DNA of 64,000 nucleotides, taken from NCBI GenBank assembly GCA_947095585.1, contig OX352761.1:142134277-142198276 (forward strand), in the 5' to 3' direction. Made by a program: the position numbers and the translations under genes. The notes below the pieces were generated by a model, which was not told the origin of the DNA, made no database searches, and worked only from the letters and a program-made list of their open reading frames with translations. Of the stretch, positions 6,201-64,000 are shown in pieces. The first letter of the stretch is position 1; every line of letters starts with the position of its first letter. The DNA comes from Nephrocerus scutellatus (taxonomy: Eukaryota; Arthropoda; Insecta; Diptera; Pipunculidae).

Positions 6201-6305
6201 AAATATAGATTTAGATTAAGAATAGGTTTAGATTTAGGTTTAGAATAGGTTTAGATTTAGATTTAAAAAAGGTTTAGATAGAGATTTAGATTTAGGTTTT
6301 AGATT

Positions 6306-40200: not shown

Positions 40201-41777
40201 GATATAGATTTAGATTTAGAATAGGTTCAGATTTAGATTTAGATTCAGTTATAGATTAGATTTAGAATTGGTTTAGATTTAGGTTTAGATTTAGTTTTAG
40301 AAATAGATTTAGTCTTAGATTTAGGTTTTGATTTATATTTAGGTTTAGATTTAGATATAAGATATAGATTTAGATTTAAAATAGGTTTAGAATTAGAATA
40401 GGTTTAGATTTAGGTTTAGATTCAGATTTAGAATAAGGTTTAGATTTAGATAGAGATTTAGGTTTAGAATTAGGTATAGATTTAGATTAGGATATAGATT
40501 TAGATTTAGAATAGGTTCAGATTTAGATTTAGATTCAGATTAAGCTTAAGATATAGATTTAGATTAAGAATAGGTTTAGTTTTAGGTTTAGAATAGGTTT
40601 AGATTTAGATTTAGATTTAGAGTAAGGTTTAGATTTAGATAGAGATTTAGGTTTAGAATTAGGTATAGATTAAGATTAGGATAGATTTAGAATAGGTTCA
40701 GATTTAGATTCAGATTTAGCTTAAGATATAGATTTAGATTAAGAATAGGTTTAGATTTAGGTTTAGAATAGGTTTAGATTTAGATTTAGAATAAGGTTTA
40801 GATTTAGATAGAGATTTAGGTTTAGAATTTGGTATAGATTAAGATTAGGATATAGATTTAGATTTAGAATAGGTTCAGATTTAGATTCAGATTTAGCTTA
40901 AGATATAGATTTAGATTAAGAATAGGTTTAGATTTAGGTTTAGAATAGGTTTAGATTTAGATTTAGAATAAGGTTTAGATTTAGAATAGGTTCAGATTTA
41001 GATTTAGATTCAGATTTTAGCTTAAGATATAGATTTAGATTAAGAATAGGTTTAGATTTAGGTTTAGAATAGGATTAGATTCAGATTTAGAATAAGGTTT
41101 AGATTTAGATAGAGATTTAGGTTTAGAATTAGGTATAGATTAAGTTTAGGATATAGATTTAGATTTAGAATAGGTTCAGATTTAGATTTAGATTCAGTTA
41201 TAGAATAGATTTAGAATTGGTTTAGATTTAGGTTTAGATTTAGTTTTAGAAATAGATTTAGTCTTAGATTTAGGTTTTGATTTATATTTAGGTTTAGATT
41301 TAGATATAAGATATAGATTTAGATTTAAAATAGGTTTAGAATTAGAATAGGTTTAGATTTAGGTTTAGATTCAGATTTAGAATAAGGTTTTGATTTAGAT
41401 AGAGATTAAGGTTTAGAATTAGGTATAGATTTAGATTAGGATATAGATTTAGATTTAGAATAGGTTCAGATTTAGATTTAGATTCAGATTAAGCTTAAGA
41501 TATAGATTTAGATTAAGAATAGGTTTAGTTTTAGGTTTAGAATAGGTTTAGATTTAGATTTTGAGTAAGGTTTAGATTTAGATAGAGATTTAGGTTTAGA
41601 ATTAGGTATAGATTAAGATTAGGATAGATTTAGAATAGGTTCACATTTAGATTCAGATTTAGCTTAAGATATAGATTTAGATTAAGAATAGGTTTAGATT
41701 TAGGTTTAGAATAGGTTTAGATTTAGAATAAGGTTTAGATTTAGATAGAGATTTAGGTTTAGAATTTGGTATAGATT
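37212..41777. repeat. Unit copy 8, hexamer tract cut short
   Basis: Core 37212-39379 is complete. The hexamer tract stops after 2,398 bp, at 41777. There the sequence jumps straight into the core at the base equivalent to 3063, skipping the end of the tract and the first 1.9 kb of the next core. Confidence 0.93.
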
Positions 41778-44052
41778 ACATATATTTTTCGTAGATCGTC
41801 GAACGTTGGGGCCTGGATGAGAGTGATGTCCCAAGGCAAGTGCCCGGGCAGCGACAGACATCCTGCAGGTAATGACCTACTTCTAACCTAGCCAGAACAA
41901 ACGAAAGTTTTTGTGCCAGATGGTTGTGGGTTTAGGTTCCACAACCATGGTAACCAGTTAAGAATAGCATGATAGAAAGATAGGTAGGTTGTTAGATGGT
42001 TAGATAGTGAGATAGAGAGAGTGTTAGTGAGATATGGATTTAGAATAGGTTTAGAATTAGAATAGGTTTAGATTTAGATTTTAGATTTGGAAATAAATTT
42101 AGATTTAGGTTTAAGATATAGTTTTAGATTCAGATTTAGATTAAGATATAGATTTAGATTAGGTTTAGGTTTAGATTTAGATTCAGATGTAGATTAAGAT
42201 ATAGATTTAGATTAAGAGTAGGTTTGGAATTAGAATAGGTTTAGATATAGATTCAGTTATAGATTAGATTTAGAATTGGTTTAGATTAAGGTTTAGATTT
42301 AGTTTTAGAAATAGATTTAGTCTTAGATTTAGGTTTTGATTTATATTTAGGTTTAGATTTAGATATAAGATATAGATTTGGATTTAAAATAGGTTTAGAG
42401 TTAGAATAGGTTTAGATTTAGGTTTAGATTCAGATTTAGAATAAGGTTTATATTTAGATAGAGATTTAGGTTTAGAATTAGGTATAGATTTAGATTAGGA
42501 TATAGATTTAGATTTAGAATAGGTTCAGATTTAGATTTAGATTCAGATTTAGCTTAAGATATAGATTTAGATTAAGAATAGGTTTAGTTTTAGGTTTAGA
42601 ATAGGTTTAGATTTAGATTTAGAATAAGGTTTAGATTAAGATAGAGATTTAGGTTTAGAATTAGGTATAGATTAAGATTAGGATATAGATTTAGATTTAG
42701 AATAGGTTCAGATTTAGATTCAGATTTAGCTTAAGATATAGATTTAGATTAAGAATAGGTTTAGATTTAGGTTTAGAATAGGTTTAGATTTAGATTTAGA
42801 AAAAGGTTTAGATTTAGAATAGGTTCAGATTTAGATTTAGAATAGGTTCAGATTTAGATTTAGATTCAGATTTTAGCTTAAGATATAGATTTAGATTAAG
42901 AATAGGTTTAGATTTAGGTTAAGAATAGGTTTAGATTCAGATTTAGAATAAGGTTTAGATTTAGATAGAGATTTAGGTTTAGAATTAGGTATAGATTAAG
43001 TTTAGGATATAGGATTAGATTTAGAATAGGTTCAGATTTAGATTTAGATTCAGTTATAGATTAGATTTAGAATTGGTTTAGATTTAGGTTTAGATTTAGT
43101 TTTAGAAATAGATTTAGTCTTAGATTTAGGTTTTGATTTATATTTAGGTTTAGATTTAGATATAAGATATAGATATAGATTTAAAATAGGTTTAGAATTA
43201 GAATAGGTTTAGATTTAGGTTTAGATTCAGATTTAGAATAAGGTTTAGATTTAGATAGAGATTTAGGTTTTGAGTTAGGTATAGATTTAGATTAGGATAT
43301 AGATTTAGATTTAGAATAGGTTCAGATTTAGATTTAGATTCAGATTAAGCTTAAGATATAGATTTAGATTAAGAATAGGTTTAGTTTTAGGTTTAGAATA
43401 GGTTTAGATTTAGATTTAGAGTAAGGTTTAGATTTAGATAGAGATTTAGGTTTAGAATTAGGTATAGATTAAGATTAGGATAGATTTAGAATAGGTTCAG
43501 ATTTAGATTCAGATTTAGCTTAAGATATAGATTTAGATTAAGAATAGGTTTAGATTTAGGTTTAGAATAGGTTTAGATTTAGATTTAGAATAAGGTTTAG
43601 ATTTAGATAGAGATTTAGGTTTAGAATTTGGTATAGATTAAGATTAGGATATAGATTTAGATTTAGAATAGGTTCAGATTTAGATTCAGATTTAGCTTAA
43701 GATATAGATTTAGATTAAGAATAGGTTTAGATTTAGGTTTAGAATAGGTTTAGATTTAGATTTAGAATAAGGTTTAGATTTAGAATAGGTTCAGATTTAG
43801 ATTTAGATTCAGATTTTAGCTTAAGATATAGATTTAGATTAAGAATAGGTTTAGATTTAGGTTTAGAATAGGATTAGATTCAGATTTAGAATAAGGTTTA
43901 GATTTAGATAGAGATTTAGGTTTAGAATTAGGTATAGATTAAGTTTAGGATATAGATTTAGATTTAGAATAGGTTCAGATTTAGATTTAGATTCAGTTAT
44001 AGATTAGATTTAGAATTGGTTTAGATTTAGGTTTAGATTTAGTTTTAGAAAT
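41778..44052. repeat. Truncated unit (260-bp core fragment plus hexamers)
   Basis: 41778-42037 equals core positions 3063-3322, followed by about 2.0 kb of hexamers. It shares variants with the next truncated unit that the full units lack: A in the CCTACTTC phrase near 41879, and AAATAAATTTAG plus TTAAGATATAG around 42094-42120. The two were therefore duplicated from one another after the full units diverged. Confidence 0.92.
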
Positions 44053-48693: not shown

Positions 48694-48893
48694 NNNNNNN
48701 NNNNNNNNNNNNNNNNNNNNNNNNNNNNNNNNNNNNNNNNNNNNNNNNNNNNNNNNNNNNNNNNNNNNNNNNNNNNNNNNNNNNNNNNNNNNNNNNNNNN
48801 NNNNNNNNNNNNNNNNNNNNNNNNNNNNNNNNNNNNNNNNNNNNNNNNNNNNNNNNNNNNNNNNNNNNNNNNNNNNNNNNNNNNNNNNNNNNN
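48694..48893. other. Assembly gap (200 N)
   Basis: Exactly 200 undefined bases between the hexamer array and the GATA array. The round number suggests a placeholder gap, so the real distance and what it holds are unknown. Confidence 0.99.
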
Positions 48894-49253: not shown

Positions 49254-49354
49254 GAGATAGACAGATAGATTTGGTCTCTGGATCATCCTTGACATAAGAA
49301 AGTTCATCCGCTGGGGTCAATATGAAATCAGAAGTTCAATCAGAAGTTGAAGAA
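48894..49354. repeat. Left copy of a 2,321-bp-spaced duplication
   Basis: Matches 51215-51675 in order and length, with identical translated frames at 49005-49307 and 51326-51628. It runs from the gap edge through the short satellite at 49262. The two copies part at the phrase GTTGAAGAA. This one then joins directly to the conserved module (49354), whereas the right copy continues for about 770 bp before its module. Confidence 0.9.
49262..49353. repeat. Dispersed ~100-bp satellite monomer (GATA-array copy 1)
   Basis: The GGTCTCTGGATCATCC..GACATAAGAAAG.. block aligns by eye with the core repeats at 1254-1350, including the GGGGTCAATATGAA and CAATCAGAAGTTGAA phrases. Confidence 0.75.
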
Positions 49355-49575
49355 CATATATTTTCTCGTAGAACGTCGAACGTTAGGGCCTGGATGAGAG
49401 TGATGTCCCAAGGCATATGCCCGGGCAGCGACAGACATCCTGCAGGTGATATCCTGCATCTAACCTAGCCGAAACAAGCGAAATTATGTGGAATATATTT
49501 GAAAGATAGTAAGATGGATATATAGAGGGACGGGGAATTAAAATTAGAAAGACAGGATGAAGGGGAATTCAAATT

Positions 49576-49580
<5 letters not shown>
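49354..49580. repeat. Conserved module, GATA-array copy 1
   Basis: Starts ACATATATTTTCTCGTAG and follows the core module through the GCCCGGGC palindrome and GACATCCTGCAGG. It then diverges (GAAACAAGCGAAATTATG) and continues with a tail shared only with the copy at 52449. It has ATATGCC where the core has AAGTGCC, and TTAGGG where most copies have TTGGGG. Confidence 0.85.
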
Positions 49581-49623
<43 letters not shown>

Positions 49624-49756
49624 GTGGGTAGATAGTTAGATATATAGATAGATAGATAGGTAGAAGGATAGTTAGATGGGTAGATAAATAGATGATAGGA
49701 GGATAGGTAGATAGAAGGATAGTTAGGTAGATAGAGAGATAGATAGAGAGATAGAC

Positions 49757-49796
<40 letters not shown>

Positions 49797-49987
49797 GGAT
49801 CGATAGAAGGATCGATAGAAGGATCGATAGAAGGATCGATAGAAGGATAGTTACATAGGTAGATAAATAGATAGAGAGATAGACGGATAGATAGATAGAT
49901 GGCTAGATGGAAGGATAGTTAGGTAGATAGATTGGTAGGTGGATAGATAGATAGATAGATAAAAGGATATTCAGGTGGATGGATAGG

Positions 49988-50018
<31 letters not shown>

Positions 50019-50091
50019 TTAGATAGATGGATAGATAGATAGATAGATAGATATATAGATATATAGATAGATAGGTAGATAGATAGGTGGG

Positions 50092-50146
<55 letters not shown>

Positions 50147-50650
50147 GTAGATAAATAGGTGGAAAGATAGTTAGGTAGATAGATAGAGAGATATACAGAT
50201 AGATAGAGAGATATACAGATAGATAGAGAGATATACAGATAGATAGATAGATAATGGATAGCAGGATAGTTAGATGGGTAGGTAAGTAGATAGATAGAAG
50301 GATAGTTAGGTAGATAGATAATAAGATAGATAGATAGATAGATAGATAGATGGATAGATAGATAGATAGATGGATAGATAGATAGATAGGTGGGTAGATA
50401 GATAGATATATAGATAGATAGATAGTTAGATAGAAGGATAGTTAAATGGGTAGATAAATAGATAGAAGGATAGATAGATAGAAGGATAGTTAGGTAGATA
50501 GAGAGATAGATAGAGAGATAGACAGATAGATAGATAGATAGATATATAGAGCGATATAAGGATAGATAGAAGGATAGTTAGATAGGTAGATAAATAGATA
50601 GAGAGATAGACGGATAGATAGATAGATGGCTAGATAGCAGGATAGTTAGG

Positions 50651-50685
<35 letters not shown>

Positions 50686-50714
50686 GTAGATAGATAGGTA
50701 GGTAGATAGGTGGG

Positions 50715-50778
<64 letters not shown>

Positions 50779-51154
50779 AGGATAGTCAGGTGGATGGATA
50801 GGTAGATAGATAGATAGATAGATAGATAAATAGTTAGATAGATGGATAGATAGATAGGTAGATATATAGGTAGATAGATAGGTGGGTAGATAGATAGATA
50901 GATAGATAGATTGCTAGATAGATAGATAGGTGGAAAGATAGTTGGGTAGATAGATAGAGAGATAGACAGATAGATAGATGGATAGATAAATAGCAGGATA
51001 GTTAGGTAGATAGATAGATAGATAGAGAGATAGACAGATAGATAGATATATAGATCGATAGAAGGATAGATAGAAGGATAGTTAGATAGGTAGATAAATA
51101 GATAGAGAGATAGACGGATAGATAGATAGATGGCTAGATAGCAGGATAGTTAGG

Positions 51155-51192
<38 letters not shown>

Positions 51193-51214
51193 TGTAGATA
51201 GATAGGTAGATAGA

Positions 51215-51234
51215 TAGGTAGATAGATAAGTGGG

Positions 51235-51270
<36 letters not shown>

Positions 51271-51526
51271 AGGATAGTCAGGTGGATGGATAGGTAGATA
51301 GATAGATAGATAGATAGATAAATAGTTAGATAGATGGATAGATAGATAGATAGATATATAGATAGATAGGTAGATAGATAGGTAGATAGATAGGTAGATA
51401 GATAGGTGGGTAGATAGATAGATAGATAGATTGATTGATAGATAGATAGGTGGAAAGATAGTTGGGTAGATAGATAGAGAGATAGACAGATAGATAGATG
51501 GATAGATAGATAGCAGGATAGTTAGG

Positions 51527-51574
<48 letters not shown>

Positions 51575-51675
51575 GAGATAGACAGATAGATTTGGTCTCT
51601 GGATCATCCTTGACATAAGAAAGTTCATCCGCTGGGGTCAATATGAAATCAGAAGTTCAATCAGAAGTTGAAGAA
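51215..51675. repeat. Right copy of the 2,321-bp-spaced duplication
   Basis: Counterpart of 48894-49354. It includes a ~100-bp satellite monomer starting near 51583, which runs on into a second, more diverged monomer (ATTGTGATTGACTTCAG.., to about 51760). Confidence 0.9.
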
Positions 51676-52448
51676 TAACATATTCAAAATTGTGATTGAC
51701 TTCAGAATAGACCTTGTCATAAGAGAATCCGTTAAACTGGAATTAGAAGCTCGTTCAGAGGTTAACAATAATGTGAATTAATTTGATATAGGCGTCACAT
51801 AGGATAGGCTTAAACTTCCAGGAATAAGTTCAGTGCCAGAGTGATAGTTTCATAGATTGCGTATGCGGTGTTAAAGCCGCTGTGTAATCGCAATGTGTGA
51901 GCTTATGAAAACTGGATATGTGGGTGACAGTGAATGCGCTTTTGTTGGTGTCAAACAATTTTCAGAATTGATGTAAAAACTGTAAGTATCCTGACTTTAG
52001 ATGTTTGTAATAATTGCATTATTAAAGTTTGGTTCTTCTTTATGTATTTTCAGGTTGATAGAAGGCGTACCAGTGGTATCAGGAAGCGACAAGGTAAGTT
52101 GTGATTTTTTTGTTTGAAACAGGAAAAAGCTTGTAGAAGCAGGTGCGTAGAACAATTATCTTTTAAATTTTCATATTTGCGAGCAGTAAAGGTTCCTGGA
52201 CGCTGCGGTATATAAATATATTTATGTGATTGTAATCAAGTATATTTTAAATTTACTAGGCTCTGAAAAGTAGTGTAAGTGCGGATTGTTTTGTTCTAGT
52301 CAATGCCCATTAGGTAAGTTGTGAATTGTATTGCGACTCTTCAGTGTTACTTCATATAGTTCGCAGAGTTTAAAAAGGTTCTTTTTGGAACTGTGAATTC
52401 GTATCTAAAAACTACAACTAGGTTGCTTGATGGTGGCTCGGAACGATA
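51676..52448. other. Complex-sequence island, no gene recognised; possible spliced non-coding exon
   Basis: About 770 bp without GATA repeats. A phrase at 52414-52445 (ACAACTAGGTTG..GGTGGCTCGGAACG) matches core 1741-1774, so the island looks like a diverged, internally deleted relative of the macrosatellite core. A segment at 52054-52093 is bracketed by TATTTTCAG and AAG|GTAAGT, a good acceptor and donor pair. A second GTAAGTTGTGAATT occurs near 52315. There is no long open frame, so any transcript would probably be non-coding. Near 51876 the phrase AAGCCGCTGTGT also matches 63851. Confidence 0.5.
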
Positions 52449-52655
52449 ACATATATTTTCTCGTAGATCGTCGAACGTTGGGGCCTGGATGAGAGTGATG
52501 TCCCAAGGCATATGCCCGGGCAGCGACAGACATCCTGCAGGTAATATCCTGCATCTAACCTAGCCGAAACAAGCGAAATTATGTGGAATATATTTGAAAA
52601 ATATATAGTCCCTCTAATTAAAATTAGAAAGACAGGATGAAGGAAAATTAAAATT

Positions 52656-52665
<10 letters not shown>
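52449..52665. repeat. Conserved module, GATA-array copy 2
   Basis: Same border and centre as the copy at 49354, with the same ATATGCC variant and the same diverged tail (GAAATTATGTGGAATATATTTG.., then an AGAAAGACAGGATGAAGG block) before GATA repeats resume near 52655. Confidence 0.85.
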
Positions 52666-52689
<24 letters not shown>

Positions 52690-53156
52690 TGATAGATAGA
52701 TAGATATGTAGGTAGATAGATATATATAGGTAAATATATAGATAGGTGGATTGATAGGTAGATTGATAGGTAGGTAGTTATATAGAGAGGTGGGCAGATA
52801 GATAGATAGGTAGATATATAGATGGATAGATAAATAGATAAATAGATAAATAGATAAATAGATAAATAGATAAATAGATGGATAGATAGATAGAAAGTTA
52901 GTTATTTATAGATAGTTAGATATTTATGATATTTTAATAGATAGATAGATAGATGGATTATTAGATAGATAGATAGATAGGTGGATAGATAGATGTATAG
53001 ATAGATAGATAGATGGATAGAGAAATAGATAGAAGGATGGTTAGGCAGATAGATAGATTGATAGAGATAGACGTATAGATGGATATATAGATAGATCGAT
53101 AGATGGTTAGATATTTAGTGATAATAGTTAGATAGATGGATGGATATATAGATAGG

Positions 53157-53198
<42 letters not shown>

Positions 53199-53216
53199 TA
53201 TAGATAGATAGATAGG

Positions 53217-53255
<39 letters not shown>

Positions 53256-53287
53256 CTAGATAGATAGATAGATAGATAGATAGGTAT

Positions 53288-53385
<98 letters not shown>

Positions 53386-53803
53386 GGATAGGTAGATAGA
53401 TAAGTGGGTAGATAGATAGATAGATAGATAGAAGGATAGTTAGATGGGTAGATAAATAGTTAGATAGAGATGGATAGATAGAAGGATAGTTAGGTAGATA
53501 GAGAGATAGATAGACAGATAGATAGATAGTTAGATCGATAGAAGGATAGGTAGAAGGATAATTAGATAGGTAGATAAATAGATAGAGAGATAGTCGGATA
53601 TATAGACAGATGGCTCGCTAGAAGGATAGTTAGGTAGATAGATTGGTAGGTGGATAGAAAAATAGATAGGTAGATAGAAGGTTAGTCAGGTGGATGAAAT
53701 AGGTAGATAGATAGATAGATAGATAGATAGTTAGATAGATGGATATATATATAGACAGACAGGTAGATGGATAGGTATATAGATAGGTAGATAGATAGGT
53801 GGG

Positions 53804-53850
<47 letters not shown>

Positions 53851-54077
53851 GTAGATAGATAGGTGGGAAGATAGTTAGGTGGGTAGGTAAAGAGATAGAC
53901 AGATAGATAGATAGATAGATAGAGAAATGGGTAGATATATGGATAGATAGATATATAGAGATAGACCGATAGATAGATGGTTAGATATTTTTGATAATAG
54001 CTAGATAGATGGATAGATAGATAGATAGGTAGATAGGTAGATAGATGGATAGATAGATAGATAGTTAGGTGGATAGT

Positions 54078-54112
<35 letters not shown>

Positions 54113-54465
54113 GTGGGTAGATAGATGGATGGATAGATGGATAGATAGTTAGACGGATAGTTAGATGGGTAGATAAATAGATAGATAGAAGGATAGATAG
54201 ATAGAAGGATGTATAGGTAGATAGAGAGATAGATAGAGAGATAGATAGAGAGATAGACAGATAGATAGATAGGTAGATAGTTAGATCGCTAGAAGGATAG
54301 TTAGGTAGGTAGATAAATAAATAGAGAGATAAATAGACGGATATATAGATAGATGGCTCGCTAGAAGGATAGTTAGGTAGATAGATTGGTAGGTGGATAG
54401 ATAGATAGGTAGGTAGATAGAAGGTTAGTCAGGTGGATAAATAGGTGGATGAATAGGTAGATAGT

Positions 54466-54504
<39 letters not shown>

Positions 54505-54615
54505 TTAGATAGATGGATAGATATATGGACAGATATATAGATATATAGATAGACAGGTAGATAGATAGGTAGATAGATAGGTAGATAGATAGGTGGGTAG
54601 ATAGATAAATAGATG

Positions 54616-54672
<57 letters not shown>

Positions 54673-55663
54673 GTAGATAGATAGATAGATAGAGAGATAG
54701 ACAGATAGATAAATAGATAGATAGATAGATAGAGGGATAGATAGATGGATAGTTAGATGGGTAGATAAAAGGGTAGATAGGGGGATAGCTAGGTAGGTAG
54801 GTAAATATATAGATAGCCGGATAGATGGGTGAATGGAAGGATAGATAGATAGGTAGGTGTATAGATAGATAGATAGAGAGATAGACAGATAGATAGATAG
54901 ATAGATAGTTAGATCGATAGAAGGATAGATGGAAGGATAGTTAGGTAGGTAGGTAAATAGATAGAGAGATAAATAGACGGATATATAGATAGATGGTTCG
55001 CTAGAAGGATAGTTAGGTGGATAGATTGGTGGGTGGATAGATAGATAGATAGATAGATAGAAGGATGGTCAGGTGGATGGATAGGTAGATGGATAGATAG
55101 ATAGATAGATAGATAGATAGTTAGATAGATGGATGGATAGATAGACAGATGTATAGATATATAGATAGACAGGTAGATAGATAGGTAGATAGATAGGTAG
55201 ATAGAAGGATAGTTGTGTAGATAGATAGATAGATAGATAGATGGATAAATAGATAGATAGGTAGATAGATAGATAGATAGGTAGATAGATAGATAGAGAG
55301 AAGACAGATAGATAAATAGATGGATAGATAGATAGAAGGATAGATAGATGGATAGTTAGATGGGTAGATAAAAGGGTAGATAGGAGGATAGCTAGATAGG
55401 TAGTTAAATATATAGATAGCCGGATGGATGGGTGAATGGAGGGATAGATAGTTGGGTAGGTGGATAGATAGATAGATAGATAGGTGGATAGGTAGATAGA
55501 AGGATAGTTAGGTAGATGGATAGGTAGGTAGTTAGGTGGATGGATAGATAGATAGCAGGATAGATAGATAGATAGCAGGATAGTTAGGTAGATAGGTAGA
55601 TATATATAGATAAATAGATAGGTAAGTAGATGGATAAGTGAATAGATGGATAGCTGGATAGAT

Positions 55664-56244
55664 GGATAGATGTATAGATAGGTAGATAGATAGTTGGTTA
55701 GATTGGTGTTATATGCTTAGGAATAGGTAGATGGATAGATAGAGAGATAAACGGATAGATGGATGGATGGATAGATAGAAGGATAGTTAGGTAGATAGAT
55801 TGGTAGGTTGATAGGTAGATAGATAGATAGATAGATATAGAGATAGATAGCGAGATAGAAAGCGAGATAGATAGATAGGTAGATAGGTAGATAGAAGGAT
55901 ATATACATAGATAGATGGATAGATCGATAGATAGGTGGGTAGATAGATAGATAGATAGATAGGTAGATAGATAGATAGATAGATAAATAGGTGGGAAGAT
56001 AGTCAGGTAGTTAGATAGATAGATAGAGAGATAGACAGATCGATAGATTGATAGATAGATTGGTAGATAGAAGGATAGTTAGATGGGTAGATAATTAGTT
56101 ATGTAGATATATAGATAAATAGATAGGTGAGTAGATAGATATGTAGATGGGTAGATATGTGAATAGAAGGATATATGGATAGATGTATAGATAGGTGGAT
56201 GGATAGTTGGTTAGATAGGTGTTATATGCTTAGGAATATAGGAT
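55664..56244. repeat. 513-bp-spaced duplication at the right edge of the GATA array
   Basis: The phrase GGATAGATGTATAGATAGG..GTTGGTTAGAT.GGTGTTATATGCTTAGGAATA occurs at 55664-55726 and again at 56177-56238. The second copy marks the end of GATA sequence. The rest of the 513 bp is GATA variants. Confidence 0.8.
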
Positions 56245-56515
56245 GATTAGGCATAATAACAGTATATAAGTAATATTTTAAGAAAGATCCATCAGAATTT
56301 TCGGCACATGGTTAATTTTGTTTCTGTAAGCCTAAAGTTGAGCTATGGCATGATTATGTGGTGTGATTTTTGGTATTCAATTTATTTTAATTAGTTGTCA
56401 GTCATTAACGACAAGGTTTCATATGTAAGTTCAATGCATTTTATGGTACCAGATGTTGGTAACAGAAACCTGGTATAAACACCCAAAAGTTTGGAATGTA
56501 TGAAAAATCCATATA

Positions 56516-56757
56516 CCAGCTGTGCTGTTGTAGCAAAAGTTTTATGGCATGTATGATTTCCGTTTTTTTAGTTATTTGGTTGAGCGAGGAAGTTTCAAGC
56601 CAGTTGTGTTGATGTAGAAGGGTTTAAAGGCATATATGGCTTTCGTTTTTTAATTGGTTGAATGAGGGATTCATAAACCATCTGTGCCGATGTAAGATAG
56701 GTTTTATGGCATGTATGGTTACCGTTTTGGTAAGTGGTTGTGAGGTTTCAGAAGTAT
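56516..56757. repeat. Three degenerate ~80-bp tandem repeats
   Basis: Monomers begin CCAGCTGTGCTG (56516), CCAGTTGTGTTG (56600) and CCATCTGTGCCG (56678). Each continues with TTTATGGCATGTATGG, then a TTCCGTTTT phrase, then TGGTTGAG. Confidence 0.75.
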
Positions 56758-56774
56758 GTGGCGAGTGTTTTTAT

Positions 56775-57040
56775 GAGTTTATGGCTTTGTATGTGCATCG
56801 AATTTACTTGGTTCATTCATTAAGGGTGGACTGCGTGTATAACACTTGGTATTTCGCGAGAATTTACCTTTTTCTTAATCGTATATGGCAAGTGAAGAAG
56901 TGTGTATTTTGTATGGCAAGTGAAGAAGTGTATATTTTTTTGGTTTATGGGTTTATGACTTTGTATGGGTATTGGGTTTTTTGGTTCATTCATTAATGGC
57001 AGACTGCATGTTATACACTTGGTATTTCCTGCGAGAGGAT
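56775..57040. repeat. Duplication with 174-bp spacing
   Basis: The block GTTTATGGCTTTGTATG..TTGGTTCATTCATTAA..ACACTTGGTATTTC at 56777 recurs at 56951 with scattered substitutions. It sits just upstream of the first gene's promoter. Confidence 0.75.
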
Positions 57041-57124
57041 CTATTTTCGTCGAATAGACAGGGATTGGTGTTTTGTCATTTAATTAATGAAAAAATATAT
57101 TAATTAGGATTATGTGAAATGGGG

Positions 57125-57132
57125 TATATAAA
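57125..57132 (+). promoter_or_regulatory. TATA box of the zinc-ribbon/SIM gene
   Basis: TATATAAA lies about 130 bp upstream of a consensus splice donor and 204 bp upstream of the ATG. A transcription start near 57155-57162 would fit the usual spacing. I saw no clear initiator element. Confidence 0.6.
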
Positions 57133-57255
57133 GGGTTGTAGGGGTGCGGATTTGTGTATTTGAGTTTATGGTTGTGGATGATCAATATAGCGTATAAACT
57201 TTTCCCGTAAGAAGAGGGACAATAAATTTGGGCCGTGATTAATTTAGTGAATCTG

Positions 57256-57327
57256 GTGAGTATGTGTTAATTGGTGTGAGAAAAGTGTTGTATAAAAGTT
57301 AAACTTCATTTACTCTTTTATTTTCAG
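57256..57327 (+). other. 5'-UTR intron of the zinc-ribbon/SIM gene (72 bp)
   Basis: Donor CTG|GTGAGT at 57256 and acceptor TTTTATTTTCAG ending at 57327. The ATG follows after a single T. In the spliced message an in-frame TGA (57248-57250) precedes the ATG, so the coding region cannot start earlier. Confidence 0.65.
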
Positions 57328-57328
57328 T

Positions 57329-58048
57329 ATGAAAATGGTAGCAAATGGTCTTCCCACATTGGTGTGTTTGAACTGTGGACGCGCTGGCTGTTCTGGAATG
57401 AGACTGTTCAAGGCATTGCGACATACGATAAGGTGCCAGAATTGTGGACGGTACCATTGGGGAAGGGGCACAGTTGGAGATCCATTTCTGCTGTCGCCTA
57501 CATCGTGTTCCTCAGAAATTGTCATTGTGGATGATGAAGAGGAAGTACGGATAAGTGGCGATTCCGGAGGTTCCTCCATGTAAGTAAACTCCATTATTGT
57601 TTAGAATAGTTCCTCATTTTAGGAGTATATACTTGAATGTATCAATCAACTGATTAATTCTTATCCGTCTCTGTTCCATTTTAGACGATTGCAATCGAGA
57701 CAAAGCGTAGAGGCCATGGCGACAACAAGTACATGCGCAGAAGGAGTCATGAGCGGACAGTTGGAGAGAAGCCAAGAGATGGTGTCGGTGGATGACATTT
57801 TAAATATGTTTGAGGGCTCCAGTGACACCGATATAATGTTGGTAGAAGCTGGGATTGCACAAGAATCCACCCTTTTGGACCAGACTTCGTCTACAGCGGA
57901 GATTGTTGTGACTGTTGGAGAGATGGATGCTGAGTCAGAACCTTCAGATGTGCAGTTTGTGGAGATAGCCGAAGGATCAGTCGATGCAGTAGATGGACAT
58001 CTGGAAGGTGTGTGTGTGGAAGATTGGGAAGTGGAATGGGAAATGTAA
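57329..58048 (+). CDS. Small acidic protein with zinc-ribbon-like N-terminus and SIM-like motifs (two coding exons)
   Basis: The predicted coding exons are 57329-57579 and 57685-58048. Splicing at AT|GTAAGT and TTTTAG|AC keeps the frame and gives 204 aa; without splicing the frame stops after 84 codons. Residues 13-39 hold CLNC..C and CQNC (Cys13, 16, 21, 36, 39), a CxxC-x19-CxxC arrangement typical of small zinc ribbons. Residues 63-72, EIVIVDDEEE, are a near-textbook SUMO-interacting motif. Weaker hydrophobic-plus-acidic stretches lie at 133-138, 156-161 and 173-178. VDDILNMFEG (119-128) resembles an acidic activation segment. The C-terminal half is strongly acidic and probably disordered. 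I do not recognise the family. Its position 0.65 kb upstream of the reverse transcriptase gene's TATA box, on the same strand and with the same architecture, suggests a partner protein or adaptor, but this is inference. Confidence 0.68.
57580..57684 (+). other. Coding intron of the zinc-ribbon/SIM gene (105 bp)
   Basis: GTAAGT donor at 57580 and a pyrimidine-rich CTGTTCCATTTTAG acceptor ending at 57684. It interrupts an isoleucine codon (AT|A). The frame continuing exactly into a long downstream open frame is the main support. Confidence 0.72.
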
Positions 58049-58128
58049 TATAATTTTGAGATATTTTACTAGGTATGTAAATAATCTCTTGTTGTAGTAT
58101 TAATGGGGTGCTTTTGTCTTAATATGTG

Positions 58129-58168
58129 AATAAAATCATGTTATTTTTTGATTTTTTTGAAAAATAAA
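58129..58168 (+). terminator. Poly(A) signals of the zinc-ribbon/SIM gene
   Basis: AATAAA at 58129-58134 and again at 58163-58168, 80-115 bp after the stop codon, followed by T-rich sequence. This indicates a transcript separate from the reverse transcriptase gene. Confidence 0.6.
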
Positions 58169-58199
58169 CTGTAAATATTCGTTATAAATATTTGAATTG

Positions 58200-58690
58200 T
58201 GTATTTAATCATCCTTTTCTTTTTCTTTTACGAAAACTTTTGTGGTTGTGTTTTTGCTGTACCTGTATTTCGTTTCTCGGAGTATAATACTTATTGTTAT
58301 GTGGGGCTCGGGTTGAATTGTTTGTAGGTTGTATTCCAGTTGGGGTGTGTAGCCGTTCAGGCTGAAACATGATTGGTATGTTCAATCTGAAGATATGTGT
58401 TTGACGTTAGGTTGCTATTGCTGATTCGCTTTTCTAATAATTTTTAACCAAAGTAGGGTGTGGGTTTTACACAAAATGCCTCGTGTTGCGTAATCATTTT
58501 TTGTGCAGGTGTATGTCTTTAAAAGGTTATTGGTCGTTATGCGTATATTTTTTTATATAAACCCTCGTATGGGTGATTAGTGGCGTGATGGACGCCTAAT
58601 TATTGCGGTAAGAGGTTTCCAGGTATGGTTGTAATTTTCCTCTCAGGGGAGGTAAGAGAGTTAGGTAGGCTGTTATGTTTTTAACTTAAT
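58200..58690. other. Intergenic stretch, nothing recognised
   Basis: G/T-rich, single copy in the window, no open frame of note and no repeat that I can see. It presumably holds the upstream regulatory region of the reverse transcriptase gene. Confidence 0.5.
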
Positions 58691-58691
58691 G

Positions 58692-58699
58692 TATATAAG
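58692..58699 (+). promoter_or_regulatory. TATA box of the reverse transcriptase gene
   Basis: TATATAAG in a GTATATAAGG context. A start near 58722-58730 would give a leader exon of about 490 bases. The leader contains short upstream frames (for example ATGAGTGAGTAA near 58745) and a TTGTGA/TCACAA inverted repeat at 58961-58981. Confidence 0.55.
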
Positions 58700-59215
58700 G
58701 ATAGGCCTGTGAAAATACGTGTACATTCGTTTTTTGGTATTCTATGAGTGAGTAACTCGTTGATCAAAGGAAAACGTCAGCAGAATTGTTATCTAAGGTG
58801 ATTTAAAACCATAAAGTAAATAGTTCATTGTGGCATTTTTTTTAAAAAAACATAAAAAATAATCTAATTAGCTAGTATAAAGCTTCGATTATAAGTCGGA
58901 TTGTTTATATAAATCTCTGAAAAGGGTTTATCGTGTGGTCGAGTTAAGTGAGCGGTGTGATTGTGAGATTCAAGATCACAAGTAGGACAAATTGAAGCTG
59001 TGAAAAATAGTGTGTGGAGATCGCTTAGTCTGATCAGTGTTAGATCGTTCAGTGAGAAACCCGTGTGTATAGCAGTTGTGAGTACGAGTGTGGATCGTCG
59101 TGTATGGTTAAGCCGTAGGACCCTGCGTGGATCACGTTGTTGTGTTCAAGATAGTCTGAGGAATTTGGAGATCGTTCTTCTACGTGTGTAAAGGATCAGA
59201 AACACGTGGACGGTG

Positions 59216-59378
59216 GTGAGTGGTAATTTTGGTCATATAATTGTATATATATATATCTATTAGCCATTGTGGTTTTTTCCGTTTATATTTCGCATTTGTA
59301 TTAGGTGTGGTATTCGCCACTGTCTTTTCCGAAAAAACGTTAAGTTTGGGTATCGTTATCGTCATTTTATTTGTATAG
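59216..59378 (+). other. 5'-UTR intron of the reverse transcriptase gene (163 bp)
   Basis: Donor GTGAGT at 59216 and acceptor TTTTATTTGTATAG ending at 59378, directly abutting the ATG. In the spliced message the upstream frame has a TAA at 59189-59191 and no ATG after it, so 59379 is the natural start. PLEs that retain introns are known, so an intron does not by itself argue for a host gene. Confidence 0.6.
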
Positions 59379-61880
59379 ATGGCTTTGCACGAAGTGCCTG
59401 GGGGTTTCTTCAATTTAACCTCCATAGATGTACCTGTCAATGTGCAAATGTTACTTAGTTACGGGCCAAAATTTGTATTACCTCGTAAGTTTGGGATTAT
59501 GGAGTATTTAGAGATGCAAGATATAATTTTCCAACGAATATTGGCAAAGTATGGGGGCGTAGTTCCTATGAGTAGCGATGATTTTAACACCATGATGCGT
59601 CCTTTGAGGGATTTGGTCAAGGGTATGGGAAATTTGGAGCCATATCAGTTTCGTCTCCTTGAGTTTTACGAAGAGGCAATGGGTTTTCTAAGGGGTAATA
59701 GGGATCTACTTATAGTGCAAGCTGATAAAGGGAAAATCACAACTTTGATGTATGCGGAAGAGTATGCATCAAAGATGAATGCATTAGTGTCAAAGGGAGT
59801 TGAGGCTGGGGTTTACTGTGAAGTAGGGGGAAGTATGTCTTTGAAGAAGAAGGCTTTACGGGATACCTTTAGATTCTTGCGTGGACAGGTTCTGGATTCA
59901 TTGAAAGAATCTCGGACTAGTTTGCCTTATAAAGTTTCCAAAGCCTTGGGTGTGGCTGATAAGGATAGTCTTTCATTGCCATATCTTTATGGTATGATAA
60001 AGTTACATAAAAAAGATAAGCCATGTAGGCCAATTGTGAGTACTCGATATTGGATAAGTGCGTCTGTGCAAAAATTGCTTCACATTATGTTATCGGATTT
60101 CCGTAAGAATGGTGATTATAATCTACGGAACATTTATATGTTGCCCAACATGTTGTCAGAAGTAGAATGTGTGGACGGTTATGCTTTTATAAAGGTGGAT
60201 ATAGTGGATATGTTCACTCGTATCCCTAGAGATGGTTTGATGGCCATTATAATGGAGTATATAGGGAGAAGCAATTATGTCAATCCATTTGGGTTGAGTG
60301 TCGTTTTGTTGAAGAGGTTGTTGGCATTCGATCTGGAAGAGTTGTCTTATGTGACGTATGCTGGTAGGATTTATCAGCAAAAGAAGGGTCTCCCCCAAGG
60401 GGGTTGTAATTCAACACTCTACGCGGAATTATATGTGGATTACCAGATGGAGAGGTGTAGGTCACATATGTGGCAAAAATTGGGAGTTCGGTTTTTCACG
60501 AAGTATGTGGATGATTTTTTGTTTTACTTGCCTGTGGGGGAAGTGGAGGGATTCCCAAAATGGTTATCGAATGAGTTGTCCTTGGAGGTGACTGTGGATC
60601 GAGAAGAAGACTTTGAGGGCAATGTCGGTATAAATTACTTAGATTATTGGATATTGAGGGATGTTAGAAATCGTCGATTCGAGTACTGTCAATATCGCAA
60701 GCCATTTGCTTCACGTAGGATGTTGAATTACCGTTCAAATCAACCGGTCTTCCAGAAAAGGGCTACCTGCATGACGCTTATGAAAAATGTGTTGAAACGG
60801 ACGAGTGTACGTTTTTTGTGGCGTGATTTGGAGGAGGCAAGATTGACCATGGAAGAGAATGGTTATCCTACTTTATGGGTTCGTCAGGTAATCACACGGT
60901 GTATAACCAGTAGGTTAGATAGTGAGAAAGAGCCTCTCTGTGTATCTATGTTAAGTTCTTATAGATCGCAGCATGGTTTGTCGATGGTAGAGCCTCAATT
61001 GAGGTTATTGAAGCCCCGTGGGGCGTCCTGGTATGATACCAAGCGAATACCTGTCTACCTAGGTGCTGCTATGGATAAATGGATGAGGTCTGTAGTGGGT
61101 TATTGGGATTTAGAAAAAAGCATATATAGGAACTCCTCTACTGTCTTTTGTGATTTACACATGAGTCTCCGTGGCACCGATCCTACATGTGATATAGCTC
61201 AGAAATGGGTGGAGATTTGTTGTGGGAATTGTAGATTAGTATTCGTGGTGTGCACATTGGATATATCTTCTGTGGTGCGTCTGGAGATGGAGGATGTGAA
61301 ATCTCCGTTGTATTTGCATGTGCAAAAGTCCGGGCATGAGCCTCTAGCCGAGGTGAGAGTGTTGTCCAAGGGTGCTCATGAATCAATGGAGGATTATTTG
61401 GTGTTGCATAGGGCATTATGTGATGTAGATGGGTTTGATTGTATTCTTCCTTTTAAGCCTCGTAGGTCTTTGAATAAGCGTCAGTTGGGAGACTTACGGC
61501 AGTGTATCGATGAGGTAAAAGGGGTTTCGGATAGTAGTGGGCACGTGCTGGAGAGTGTCCGTGGTTTCGATGGGTTGGGAATTGAAGTTATTGCGGGGTT
61601 AGCTGATCCGGATGACGGTGATTTTCAAGATATATATGTAGATGTGGGTGAGCTAGGGGATGTGGATATGGACGAGCTAGGGGATGATGAGGATAATAGG
61701 CCAGTGGGGGTCGCGGCAGAAGTGGAGATGAGTAGTTGTGTATCTGTTTCCCCTCGGTGGGCAGGAGAATTCGTGGATGAGGTTTTGGGTAGGGAGCGTG
61801 GTAATCCAAGGACTGGTATGTGTAGGAAGAGGCGTTGGAAGGAAAATAGAAAACGTAAATATGAATCAGGGTTGATGTAA
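59379..61880 (+). CDS. Penelope-like element reverse transcriptase, endonuclease-less, 833 aa
   Basis: Predicted RNA-templated DNA polymerase of the PLE group, the sister group of telomerase reverse transcriptase. The N-terminal part carries the PLE signatures GPKF (29-32) and ADKG (115-118). Fingers: YLYGMIKLHKKDKPCRPIVS (202-221). Palm motif A: KVDIVDMFTRIP (272-283, Asp274). Motif B: YQQKKGLPQGGCNS (332-345). Motif C: YVDDFLFYLP (376-385, Asp378 and Asp379). Next is INYLDYWI (418-425), then a PLE thumb signature YRKPF..NYRSNQPVFQKR (439-461). All catalytic residues are present and the frame is unbroken, so it could be active. Residues 480-740 are unassigned, with a Cys cluster at 604-625. 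I see no GIY-YIG or CCHH endonuclease at either end. An acidic stretch (742-773, with SIM-like DIYVDVGE) and a basic, nuclear-localisation-like tail (816-827) close the protein. Alternative: a domesticated host copy. Confidence 0.95.
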   Translation: MALHEVPGGFFNLTSIDVPVNVQMLLSYGPKFVLPRKFGIMEYLEMQDIIFQRILAKYGGVVPMSSDDFNTMMRPLRDLVKGMGNLEPYQFRLLEFYEEAMGFLRGNRDLLIVQADKGKITTLMYAEEYASKMNALVSKGVEAGVYCEVGGSMSLKKKALRDTFRFLRGQVLDSLKESRTSLPYKVSKALGVADKDSLSLPYLYGMIKLHKKDKPCRPIVSTRYWISASVQKLLHIMLSDFRKNGDYNLRNIYMLPNMLSEVECVDGYAFIKVDIVDMFTRIPRDGLMAIIMEYIGRSNYVNPFGLSVVLLKRLLAFDLEELSYVTYAGRIYQQKKGLPQGGCNSTLYAELYVDYQMERCRSHMWQKLGVRFFTKYVDDFLFYLPVGEVEGFPKWLSNELSLEVTVDREEDFEGNVGINYLDYWILRDVRNRRFEYCQYRKPFASRRMLNYRSNQPVFQKRATCMTLMKNVLKRTSVRFLWRDLEEARLTMEENGYPTLWVRQVITRCITSRLDSEKEPLCVSMLSSYRSQHGLSMVEPQLRLLKPRGASWYDTKRIPVYLGAAMDKWMRSVVGYWDLEKSIYRNSSTVFCDLHMSLRGTDPTCDIAQKWVEICCGNCRLVFVVCTLDISSVVRLEMEDVKSPLYLHVQKSGHEPLAEVRVLSKGAHESMEDYLVLHRALCDVDGFDCILPFKPRRSLNKRQLGDLRQCIDEVKGVSDSSGHVLESVRGFDGLGIEVIAGLADPDDGDFQDIYVDVGELGDVDMDELGDDEDNRPVGVAAEVEMSSCVSVSPRWAGEFVDEVLGRERGNPRTGMCRKRRWKENRKRKYESGLM

Positions 61881-62002
61881 ATTCAGATGTGTTTTGAAAG
61901 CATGATATTTGGGCTAGTGGATAGGTGAATTGCTGGTGTTGGAATTTTTTGTATTGGTCATTATATCTGGTCCTTCTTGGACCTGGGTGGTTTTGGATTC
62001 TT

Positions 62003-62782
62003 GTTGGTTCCAATACTGGTTCAATGCTTTATCTCAGGGTTCAAATCTGTATATTAGGTGGGAAGGATTTTAAACCTTACATAATAGCAATAAATATTCA
62101 TTAGTAAGGACTTATAATTGAGGTTTTTAACTCAGAATCGTAACCGGTTTCAAGGTTAGACCATAAGAGGATCGCTGGGCCAAAGTCAAGAACCGAAATA
62201 AAAGTTATATTTGGTTTGACGACTGGATCCCGATATAAGAAGGTCGAAAAATCAAGGTCAACAACCGAAAATACAAACCGAGGATAAAAGGCAAAAGCAG
62301 AAATAAAAATTATAAAAACAAAGCCAAAAATAAAAATGGAGGTTAAAGACGGCGTGAGTTTTTTTGTTGCAAACGTCATGTAGAAAGATGTAAAGGCGAC
62401 ATGAGTTTGGTTGTAAAAGGCGCGTAAGAGGAAGCTGTTTTTGAAAAACCAATAATTTTGAACCTATGTATCTGGTGCGAAAAACGCTGTGTAAACATAA
62501 TTGGATAGTGTGGATTTTTGGTTCTCGATTCAGATAAGGTTTCAATCCATAAGTATTAACAATGGAGCCCTAAGAGATTAAGTCTTAAGAGCTTACAATC
62601 AATTTTCTACATAAAGGAAGCATAAGTAACCAATCATAAAAACAATCATAAAGGAGCCATTACATACAGTATACAAGCACTCATGGTGTCTCGCAATTAA
62701 GTCGTAAGTGGCCTCGGGATCAATCTTGGCATGAGAGAATCAATCAAATGAAATCAGATACAGAATCATGATTATCGGTTAT
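62003..62782 (+). repeat. Downstream tandem monomer 1 (about 780 bp)
   Basis: Begins GTTCCAATACTGGTTCAATG and runs through AGGGTTCAAATCTGTATATTAGG (62036), the AATAAA phrase, an A-rich block (62250-62340) and GAGTTTTTTTGTTGCAAACGTCATGTAGAAAGATG (62355 onward). No gene; the small minus-strand frames have no domain I recognise. Confidence 0.75.
62089..62094 (+). terminator. Poly(A) signal of the reverse transcriptase gene
   Basis: AATAAA about 209 bp after the stop codon. It lies inside the first of the downstream repeat monomers. The second monomer keeps AATAAA at 62863-62868; the third has AATAAG. Confidence 0.6.
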
Positions 62783-62790
62783 GTTCCAAT
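62700..62790. repeat. Dispersed ~100-bp satellite relative inside the downstream monomers
   Basis: GGCCTCGGGATCAATCTTGGCATGAG and the following ATCAATCAA phrase resemble core 1250-1290. An equivalent block (GGCTTCGGGGTTGACCTTGGCGTGAG) lies at about 63424-63470. Divergence is high, so I call it a family relative rather than a copy. Confidence 0.5.
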
Positions 62791-63490
62791 ATTGGTTCAA
62801 GATTTTTCTCAGGGTTCAAAACTATATATTAGGTGGAAAAGACCTACTCTATATATGCTGGCAATAAAGACTCATTGTTGTGGTCTCATAATGAAGGTTT
62901 CCCAATCAGATTCGTAATCAGTTTAAAAATTAGAACATAGAACATTGACCGCAATTTTAAAATCGAAAATGGTTAGAAGGCTGAATTCTGACATAAGAAG
63001 GTCAATAACCAAGAGTTAGAAAAGGAAAATAGAAAAACGAAATTAGGGTCAAAAATAAAATTAAAATTAAAGATAAATAAATAAAAGGAAATTTAACCAA
63101 ACGATGTGAGTTTGGATGAAAACGTCATGTTGAATGTTGTTAAAACGACGTAAATTTGGTTGTAGAATTCAAGTAAGAGGATGCTGCTGCGTAACATTAA
63201 TTTTGGTACTTGTGTACATAGTGTGTAATCGTGATTGCATACAGTAAGGTCTTGAAGATTTTTATATAATAGAGTCTCACAATCAATATGTTCCAATAGT
63301 AGAGTCAATAGAAAACAGTCATAGAAAAGTCACAGTCAACAGTAGAGGCATATGAAAAGTAATGACATACAACTTTCATAATCAGTGCATAACACTGACA
63401 GAGTCTCGTAATTAAATCTTAATTGGCTTCGGGGTTGACCTTGGCGTGAGTGGATCAATCAACTAAGGCCGAGATTAAAGTTATGAGCCA
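62783..63490 (+). repeat. Downstream tandem monomer 2 (about 710 bp)
   Basis: Begins GTTCCAATATTGGTTCAAG and follows monomer 1 in the same order with many substitutions and indels. Its A-rich block lies near 63010-63090 and its AACGTCATGTTGAATG phrase near 63120. Confidence 0.72.
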
Positions 63491-64000
63491 TGTTCCCGTA
63501 TAGGTTTAATGTTTTCCTTATGGGTTTAAATCTGTATATTAGACAAAACGTACTTAATCCATACGTGATTGTAATAAGGATTCATTAGTGAGGCCTGTTG
63601 ATTAAGGTTTTCCAATCAGAATTGTGATTGGCTGCCAGATTATACCATAAGAAGGTCAGTAAGCGCAAGTCAAAACCCGAATCTAGAAAACGAAAACAAA
63701 CCAACATTAATATGAGGGTTAATGACGACGTGAGTTTGGTTGCAAACGTCATGTAGAAAGATATTAAAGTAGCGCGAGTTTTGTTGTAAACGCCATGTGT
63801 GAGGTGTTGCCTCAAAAACAATTAAAGCTGTACCTGTGCATGTAGTGTGAAAGCCGCTGTGTGAACGTGGTTGCATAATGCGGATTTTAGAAGGTTATAG
63901 TTCAGTTAAGGCCTCATAGCCAATATATACTATTAATGGAGTCAGAAGAAAAAGGAGAAAGGGCACAAAAAACACACAATCAGTATATGTCAGCACAAGA
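63491..64000 (+). repeat. Downstream tandem monomer 3 (cut by the window end)
   Basis: Begins GTTCCCGTATAGGTTTAATG, has GGGTTTAAATCTGTATATTAG at 63522 and AAACGTCATGTAGAAAGAT near 63744. AAGCCGCTGTGTGAACG at 63851 echoes 51876, in the GATA-array island. Confidence 0.7.

What the first reader, a model, noticed from the sequence alone, without database searches (positions are those of the whole stretch)
59379..61880. Intact endonuclease-less Penelope-like reverse transcriptase beside telomere-like arrays
Seen: an uninterrupted 833-aa frame with PLE signatures (GPKF, ADKG, KLHKKDKPCRPIVS, the YRKP..SNQP..K thumb) and catalytic Asp274, Asp378 and Asp379. There is no GIY-YIG signature at either end. 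Known: endonuclease-deficient PLEs in rotifers, fungi and other eukaryotes associate with chromosome ends, and PLEs and telomerase reverse transcriptase are sister groups. Inference: the element may be a telomere-targeted retroelement in a lineage where this is not well documented.
Basis: partly seen in the sequence, partly recalled or inferred. Interest (0 to 1): 0.88.

Follow-up and report, generated by a model that had tools for sequence, protein, structure and literature searches.

The report
Fly chromosome ends built by retroelements
At chromosome ends of a big-headed fly, long repeats that carry an intact gene for a telomerase-like copying enzyme appear to have been added one after another onto worn-down ends, which suggests a new way for an animal to rebuild chromosome ends without telomerase.

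Summary
Confirmed, and larger than reported. The window lies at the right end of chromosome 1 of the fly Nephrocerus scutellatus (genome and scaffold sizes match exactly). The 833-aa RT is intact, has no GIY-YIG domain, and its nearest solved folds are telomerase RTs. It sits in a 17,590-bp element, tandem to the end of the scaffold, with a second conserved gene (small zinc-finger protein) and a TAGA array. Shorter elements without either gene share its end sequences. Of 25 long RT copies scored, 19 of 21 intact ones lie within 200 kb of a scaffold end, 0 of 4 broken ones do. Key evidence: of 41 copies of a conserved start block examined, 25 follow a complete element and 16 are joined, at the same start site, to 16 different sequences; ten of these match end-located DNA, including RT elements cut in mid-body. 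That reads as erosion and re-addition, as in HeT-A/TART arrays. But the RT gene points toward the tip, opposite to HeT-A/TART, so the copied template strand is antisense to the RT gene. Interior copies exist, and 7 of 12 scaffold tips show other sequence. RT-driven end addition is inferred; no RNA data were available.

The parts
59379..61880 (+). Endonuclease-less PLE/TERT-type reverse transcriptase gene, 833 aa
   Evidence: frame; RVT_1; relatives; TERT nearest folds
61221..61337 (+). C-terminal CxxC...HxxxxxH zinc-finger-like motif of the RT (C615, C618, H647, H653)
   Evidence: invariant in 8 of 8 rows and 13 of 13 rows
57329..57579 (+). Exon 1 (predicted) of companion zinc-finger protein gene (CxxCGRxHWGxGTxxDPFLL)
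   Evidence: joining at GTAAGT...TTTTAG gives 204 aa; 48 homologous places in the genome, 38 within 10 kb of an RT match
57685..58048 (+). Exon 2 (predicted) of companion gene
   Evidence: short HLxGVCxxDW match in the C4 right-end element (E 0.008)
52450..52578 (+). Conserved start block of the RT element (fixed proximal end CATATATTTT through CTAACCTAGCCGAAACAAGCGAAA)
52657..56218 (+). Degenerate (TAGA)n array inside the RT element
52450..64000 (+). RT element (period 17,590 bp; runs on beyond the window, followed by further tandem copies up to the scaffold end)
   Evidence: next copy identical over 17,590, third copy 1 mismatch in 14,980
3064..41778 (+). 5,151-bp elements without RT or companion gene, in tandem (starts at 3064, 8215, 13366, 18517, 23668, 28819, 33970, 39121), each with start block and TTTAGA array; the last one is cut at 41778
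   Evidence: 0-2 mismatches between neighbours in 8 of 9 comparisons; longest frame 83 aa
41779..49354 (+). Successive truncated elements (starts at 41779, 44053, 46701), each joined to a TTTAGA array cut at a different place; includes the scaffold gap and a short cut piece of a C4-left-type unit after it
49355..52449 (+). Element with a C4-left-type start block and TAGA array, cut where the RT element begins
   Evidence: block identical to C4-left copies; position
48694..48893 (.). Scaffold gap (200 N)

Best explanation
This is the RT-bearing (autonomous) member of a chromosome-end retroelement system in a fly, an order reported to lack telomerase. Full elements (tandem periods about 15.0, 17.6 and 18.2 kb by subfamily) encode an endonuclease-less RT of the PLE/telomerase branch and a small zinc-finger protein; shorter elements (4.1, 4.8, 5.15 kb) without these genes share the start block and distal region and are probably copied in trans. 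Elements are added to bare, eroded chromosome ends: the G-rich 3' end of the chromosome primes copying at a fixed end of a C-rich template, so each element starts at about CATATATTTT(Y)TCGTAG and points outward; the tip then erodes until the next addition. Shown: end concentration, fixed starts, different cut attachment sites, outward orientation at right ends, shared blocks, intact RT with low dN/dS. Inferred: that the RT does the copying, that no endonuclease is needed because the end supplies the 3'-OH, and that the template is an RNA antisense to the RT gene (or the cDNA of the sense RNA). Identical tandem copies imply that recombination amplifies them too.
For: Scaffold C1 ends in the element's TAGA array. 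RT search, 60 rows (54 of 120 candidates scored): 19 of 21 long intact rows within 200 kb of an end (0.39% of the genome), 0 of 4 long rows with stops; 19 of 19 right-end rows on +. 41 start-block copies examined: 16 on 16 different flanks, 9 of them 100% over 84 nt and one 90.6% over 53 nt to held end DNA, including RT elements cut at two points, TTTAGA arrays cut at four places and two end satellites. Elements shared between different chromosomes: C1/C5 right 99.8% over 1,018 bp, C4/C6 right 99.9% over 5.9 kb. Block matches: + at right ends 22 of 22, - at left ends 8 of 8, among 40 scored. dN 0.28-0.30 vs dS 1.7-2.0 (near saturation) between three end subfamilies. 20 of 21 long intact RT copies have the companion gene within 10 kb. 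TERTs rank first in fold. Telomerase reported absent from Diptera (passages of PMC12051294, PMC7694509).
Against: The RT gene lies on the strand opposite to the inferred template, unlike HeT-A/TART. Tandem 17.6-kb copies with 0 mismatches fit DNA amplification as well as retrotransposition. The family also occurs in the interior: 10 of 40 scored block matches; 17 of 48 motif hits at up to 1 mismatch; the 52 listed 2-mismatch hits are all interior, but that list is cut on C1 before its right end; 22 of 48 companion-gene rows lie over 200 kb from an end; interior RT copies L038 and L039 are intact too, with dN below dS. RT rows near left ends (C2 at 108 kb, C1 fragments at 72 kb) are on +, that is, inward. 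Only 5 of 12 scaffold tips lie in element or related sequence (C1R, C4L, C4R, C5R, C6R); the other seven show other sequence or satellites. No expression data; assembly ends may not be true telomeres.
Confidence: 0.68

Rival explanations
1. DNA-only telomere satellites: long complex terminal tandem repeats maintained by recombination, break-induced replication or gene conversion, in which an RT gene rides as passenger.
For: Near-identical tandem units and other long satellites on several ends; recombination or gene conversion is suggested for midge telomeres (passages of PMC12051294).
Against: Recombination does not predict one fixed start joined to 16 different flanks, nor long intact RT copies concentrated at ends while most interior copies are broken or fragmentary.
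Confidence: 0.2
2. End addition happens, but by joining of linear extrachromosomal DNA with a defined end (for example cDNA made from the sense RNA, or a nicked circle), rather than by copying an RNA at the chromosome 3' end. (A variant of the best explanation, so the odds overlap.)
For: The RT gene is on the added (G-rich) strand, so sense RNA must first become cDNA; fixed starts would then mark the RNA 5' end.
Against: Needs an extra joining step; distal erosion with a fixed proximal start is simplest as primed copying from the end. Not excluded.
Confidence: 0.25
3. Ordinary Penelope-type transposon that accumulates in subtelomeric heterochromatin because selection against it is weak there.
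For: Interior copies and clusters exist.
Against: Outward orientation in 19 of 19 right-end rows, tandem elements to the end of scaffold C1, fixed starts on cut elements, and no endonuclease found.
Confidence: 0.08
4. Assembly artefact: repeat contigs misplaced at scaffold ends.
For: A 200-N gap inside the window; 267 contigs in 8 scaffolds (passage of PMC11252644).
Against: The motif lies within 200 kb of 7 of 12 scaffold ends, on + at the five right ends and - at C4 left, with C2 left (+) as the exception; of the loci read, only C1's end region and C7 held N runs (loci to L040), so the junctions there lie within contigs; identical RT proteins lie on both sides of the C1 gap.
Confidence: 0.04

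Closest known systems
HeT-A / TART / TAHRE telomeric retrotransposons of Drosophila
   Same: Fly without telomerase; head-to-tail arrays in one orientation at ends (passages of PMC5537684); fixed proximal start with truncated distal side, and related arrays inside chromosomes (both recalled for Drosophila); coding and non-coding elements sharing terminal sequence (recalled)
   Different: Those are non-LTR elements (jockey-type recalled) that point toward the centromere (passage of PMC12051294); here the RT is PLE/TERT-type, without endonuclease, and is read toward the tip
Endonuclease-deficient Penelope-like elements Athena (and the giant terminons) of bdelloid rotifers
   Same: EN-less RT of the PLE/telomerase branch at telomeres; large units with extra genes (passages of the review PMC5537684); profile match of this family to bdelloid RTs, hhalign 99.7%
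   Different: [quoted passage not shown] here the element carries its own long degenerate TAGA array and a different companion gene, in an order reported to lack telomerase; 19% identity in the profile alignment
Telomerase (TERT + template RNA)
   Same: Nearest solved folds are TERTs, aligned over model residues about 11-555, beyond the RT core; copying from a chromosome 3' end at a fixed template position is inferred
   Different: RT is encoded inside the terminal repeat, would add kilobases, and has a C-terminal zinc-finger-like motif; no telomerase RNA known here
Retrotransposon-related arrays at Bradysia coprophila chromosome ends
   Same: Dipteran end arrays with RT similarity, some pointing away from the centromere (passages of PMC12051294)
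   Different: Short 1.7-3.3 kb units; not described as PLE and no fixed-start junctions in the passages read

Membership tests
Penelope-like elements (EN-deficient) | RT core with PLE-type N-terminal extension and thumb motif | tested here: met
   hhalign 99.7%, E 1.3e-25 over 453 columns to 12 bdelloid-type RTs, from LSYGPKF to the thumb; frames of eight other RT loci of this genome 1.2%. That these bdelloid RTs are PLEs is recalled, not tested
Penelope-like elements (EN-deficient) | No GIY-YIG endonuclease | tested here: met
Penelope-like elements (EN-deficient) | Groups with PLEs next to TERT in an RT tree | not tested
   [not shown]
Penelope-like elements (EN-deficient) | Hammerhead ribozyme in terminal repeats | tested here: inconclusive
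   no Rfam match at gathering or at E<=1 (window 49200-62200 only)
Penelope-like elements (EN-deficient) | Association with chromosome ends | tested here: met
HeT-A/TART-type telomeric retrotransposons | Head-to-tail arrays in one orientation at ends | tested here: met
   exception C2 left
HeT-A/TART-type telomeric retrotransposons | Fixed proximal start, truncated distal ends | tested here: met
   16 different flanks at one start among 41 copies examined
HeT-A/TART-type telomeric retrotransposons | ORFs read toward the centromere | tested here: not met
   19 of 19 right-end RT rows on +
HeT-A/TART-type telomeric retrotransposons | jockey-type non-LTR RT | tested here: inconclusive
   relatives, profile match and fold ranking are PLE/TERT-type, but no jockey RT was compared
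Telomerase | TERT-specific RNA-binding domain family | tested here: inconclusive
   no Pfam TERT family in the RT; PF12009 not found in the genome, but nothing rang in the control either
Telomerase | Dedicated template RNA | not testable with these tools
   no transcript data

The most novel reading that the evidence does not exclude
A telomerase-like system re-evolved in flies: a TERT-related RT encoded in the terminal repeat acts in trans on a separate C-rich template RNA, antisense to its own gene, with a precise 3' end at the start block, and adds element DNA to any bare chromosome end; the shorter elements are mainly template RNA genes, and the zinc-finger protein is part of the end complex.
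Probability: 0.33. Interest if true: 0.95.

Novelty: new variant of a known kind. Interest (0 to 1): 0.88.

Why it matters
How flies other than Drosophila keep their chromosome ends after losing telomerase is open for most families. This would be an animal chromosome end made of elements with an RT from the telomerase/Penelope branch instead of the LINE branch, and a testable model for how telomerase could have arisen from, or given way to, a selfish element. The outward-pointing RT gene puts enzyme and template on opposite strands, a split that is reminiscent of telomerase.

Tried and rejected
Hammerhead or other known RNA: no Rfam match. RNA structure of the 117-nt block: z-scores -2.05, -1.44, -0.64 for three variants on one strand and -1.86 for one on the other, too weak to claim. 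Viral contigs: 36 stretches matched a pattern, none encoded a relative; plasmid tblastn no match. TERT in the genome: PF12009 0 hits but no positive control. A (TTAGG)n pattern was asked three times and not answered. Own-mRNA target-primed addition in the HeT-A geometry was rejected because of RT orientation. Eight paper searches (lists showed 20 of 32, 25 of 26, 20 of 39, 12 of 13, 12 of 13, 9 of 9, 3 of 3 and 10 of 26 papers) showed no title or abstract start that reports a Penelope-type element at fly chromosome ends; the library lacks most subscription papers, and the two Arkhipova-group papers on Athena and terminons were not held; the Lukhtanov and Pazhenkova 2023 insect survey was seen only as a citation.

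Full report
What and where. The window is G000:C1:142134277-142198276 of a 613,391,848-bp genome in 9 contigs; C1 is 142,240,654 bp. These numbers are printed for Nephrocerus scutellatus (Pipunculidae), assembly idNepScut1.1, in its genome note (passages of PMC11252644); the word telomere occurs 0 times in that text. The RT gene is 44.5 kb from the end of chromosome 1.

The element. Beyond the window the same sequence repeats with a period of 17,590 bp up to the scaffold end, which lies in a TAGA array; copy 2 is identical to copy 1 over 17,590 bp and copy 3 differs at 1 of 14,980. Per element: start block, TAGA array, companion gene, RT, a non-coding stretch of over 7 kb and a distal region. 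The companion is a predicted two-exon, 204-aa protein with CxxCGRxHWGxGTxxDPFLL; 48 homologous places were found, 38 of them within 10 kb of an RT match and 26 within 200 kb of an end; 20 of 21 long intact RT copies have it within 10 kb, C4:74.83 Mb being the exception. Its function is unknown; no Pfam family passes its cut-off. A second subfamily on C4 right (period 15,017 bp) has RT and companion matches in two neighbouring places on the 3' side of the RT. The 18.2-kb period of a third subfamily on C6 comes from coordinates alone.

Genome-wide distribution. The RT search returned 60 rows (54 of 120 candidates scored). Of 25 rows covering at least 680 residues, 21 are free of stops and 19 of these lie within 200 kb of a scaffold end (C1 right 6, C6 right 8, C4 right 4, C2 left 1); the two others are C2:36.23 Mb and C4:74.83 Mb. 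The 4 long rows with stops lie further in, as do 31 of 35 shorter rows. Tandem copies are not independent: the 19 come from four ends. All 19 right-end rows (18 long, 1 short) are on +; the four left-end rows (C2 at 108 kb; C1 fragments at 72 kb) are also on +, which is against mirror symmetry. Between three end subfamilies dN is 0.28-0.30 with dS 1.7-2.0 (near saturation; Nei-Gojobori), so the protein has been kept by selection, at least in the past; the C-terminal part is less conserved. Comparisons with the two intact interior copies also give dN below dS (0.52-0.71 vs 1.5-2.4). Copies on different chromosomes are almost identical: C1/C5 right 99.8% over 1,018 bp, C4/C6 right 99.88% over 5.9 kb, and the C2-left and C4-right RT genes do not differ over 839 codons.

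Shorter partners. The 5,151-bp units of the window and 4,790-bp units at C4 left share with the RT element a distal region (76% and 82% over about 670 bp) and the start block (91-100%). C3 right has 4,144-bp units with the same motif. The longest ATG frames in one unit of each are 83, 100 and 78 aa. The 24-bp motif occurs 267 times at up to 3 mismatches against 8 for the reversed control. Of the 48 hits with at most 1 mismatch, 31 lie within 200 kb of an end (C1R, C2L, C3R, C4L, C4R, C5R, C6R: 7 of 12 ends) and 17 are interior. The 52 listed hits with 2 mismatches are interior, many in tandem clusters, but the list stops on C1 before its right end, where the 5,151-bp units carry this very 2-mismatch form; 167 hits were not listed. 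So the family is not confined to ends. GC skew is positive in the six right-end and negative in the six left-end stretches read (3-20 kb each), though near zero at C2R, C1L and C6L: the G-rich strand tends to run to the tip. Of the 12 scaffold tips, C1R, C5R and C6R lie in RT-element sequence, C4L in the array of a shorter unit and C4R in sequence 75% like part of the C4 unit; the other seven show other sequence or satellites.

Junctions. I looked at the upstream side of 41 copies of the start block (24 in held end loci; 17 fetched). 25 have the same upstream sequence, taken as the distal end of a complete element. 16 have 16 different upstream sequences, yet the block begins within about 3 nt of the same CATATATTTT site, with substitutions in four interior copies. 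Nine of the 16 flanks match held end DNA at 100% over 84 nt and one at 90.6% over 53 nt: two are RT elements cut at different points (C1:142.070 and 142.092 Mb), four are TTTAGA arrays cut at different places, two are C4-left-type units, one is a C5-left sequence and one resembles the 180-bp C2-right satellite. One more matches partly (37 nt), and five interior flanks match nothing held; the database held only fetched end sequences. Divergence of flanks cannot explain breaks inside sequences that are otherwise identical. The pattern is what I recall of HeT-A/TART arrays: a fixed proximal start, and distal ends worn to different points before the next addition.

Mechanism. On the right arm the strand with the 3' end at the tip is the + strand, so new DNA starting with CATATATTTT is a copy of a C-rich strand that ends at the complement of that site. 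The RT gene is on +, so its mRNA is not that template. Either an antisense RNA with a precise 3' end is copied (favoured), or the sense RNA is first turned into cDNA whose 3' end is then used. No long T-run precedes the start at the 16 junctions, so a poly(A) tail seems not to be part of the template. No endonuclease is needed if the chromosome end is the primer. Large identical tandem arrays suggest that recombination adds to the growth. None of this has been seen as RNA or activity.

Novelty. Telomerase loss in Diptera, HeT-A/TART, and complex terminal repeats are known (passages of PMC12051294, PMC7694509, PMC5537684, PMC4700185). Endonuclease-less PLEs at telomeres are known from rotifers (review passages). 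Bradysia has RT-related end arrays, some pointing away from the centromere, possibly a parallel. Eight paper searches showed, in the parts listed, no PLE-type element as the substance of fly chromosome ends. I rate it a new variant of a known kind: telomeric retroelements, with a different RT lineage and a reversed gene orientation.

Noticed in passing
G000 C4:74824400-74828200 (L039 250-3459, -): An interior RT copy, 37% identical, with an unbroken 1,070-aa frame and a long repetitive C-terminal extension, and no companion-gene match within 10 kb; may be a host gene or another lineage.
   Followed up: partly
G000 C2 left, C3 left, C5 left (L017-L020, L023-L024): 1,611/1,612-bp and 256-bp tandem satellites at three left scaffold ends, C-rich on + (G-strand to the tip); C3 left then has an AAATCT (TTTAGA) array with a diverged copy of the start-block tail.
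   Followed up: partly
G000 C1:52.10-52.11 Mb, C1:61.1, 79.5, 81.2 Mb, C1:123.86 Mb (spacing 5,305): Interior tandem clusters with the start block or motif, possibly pericentromeric or former chromosome ends.
   Followed up: partly
window 62000-64000: Diverged direct repeats of several hundred bp in the stretch after the RT gene (self-comparison of the element).
   Followed up: no
P0030 (Nosema granulosis, 661 aa): A protein labelled microsporidian, about half identical to bdelloid rotifer RTs of this type; possible horizontal transfer or contamination.
   Followed up: no
G000 C7 (34,118 bp): The first 10,000 bases read as N.
   Followed up: no
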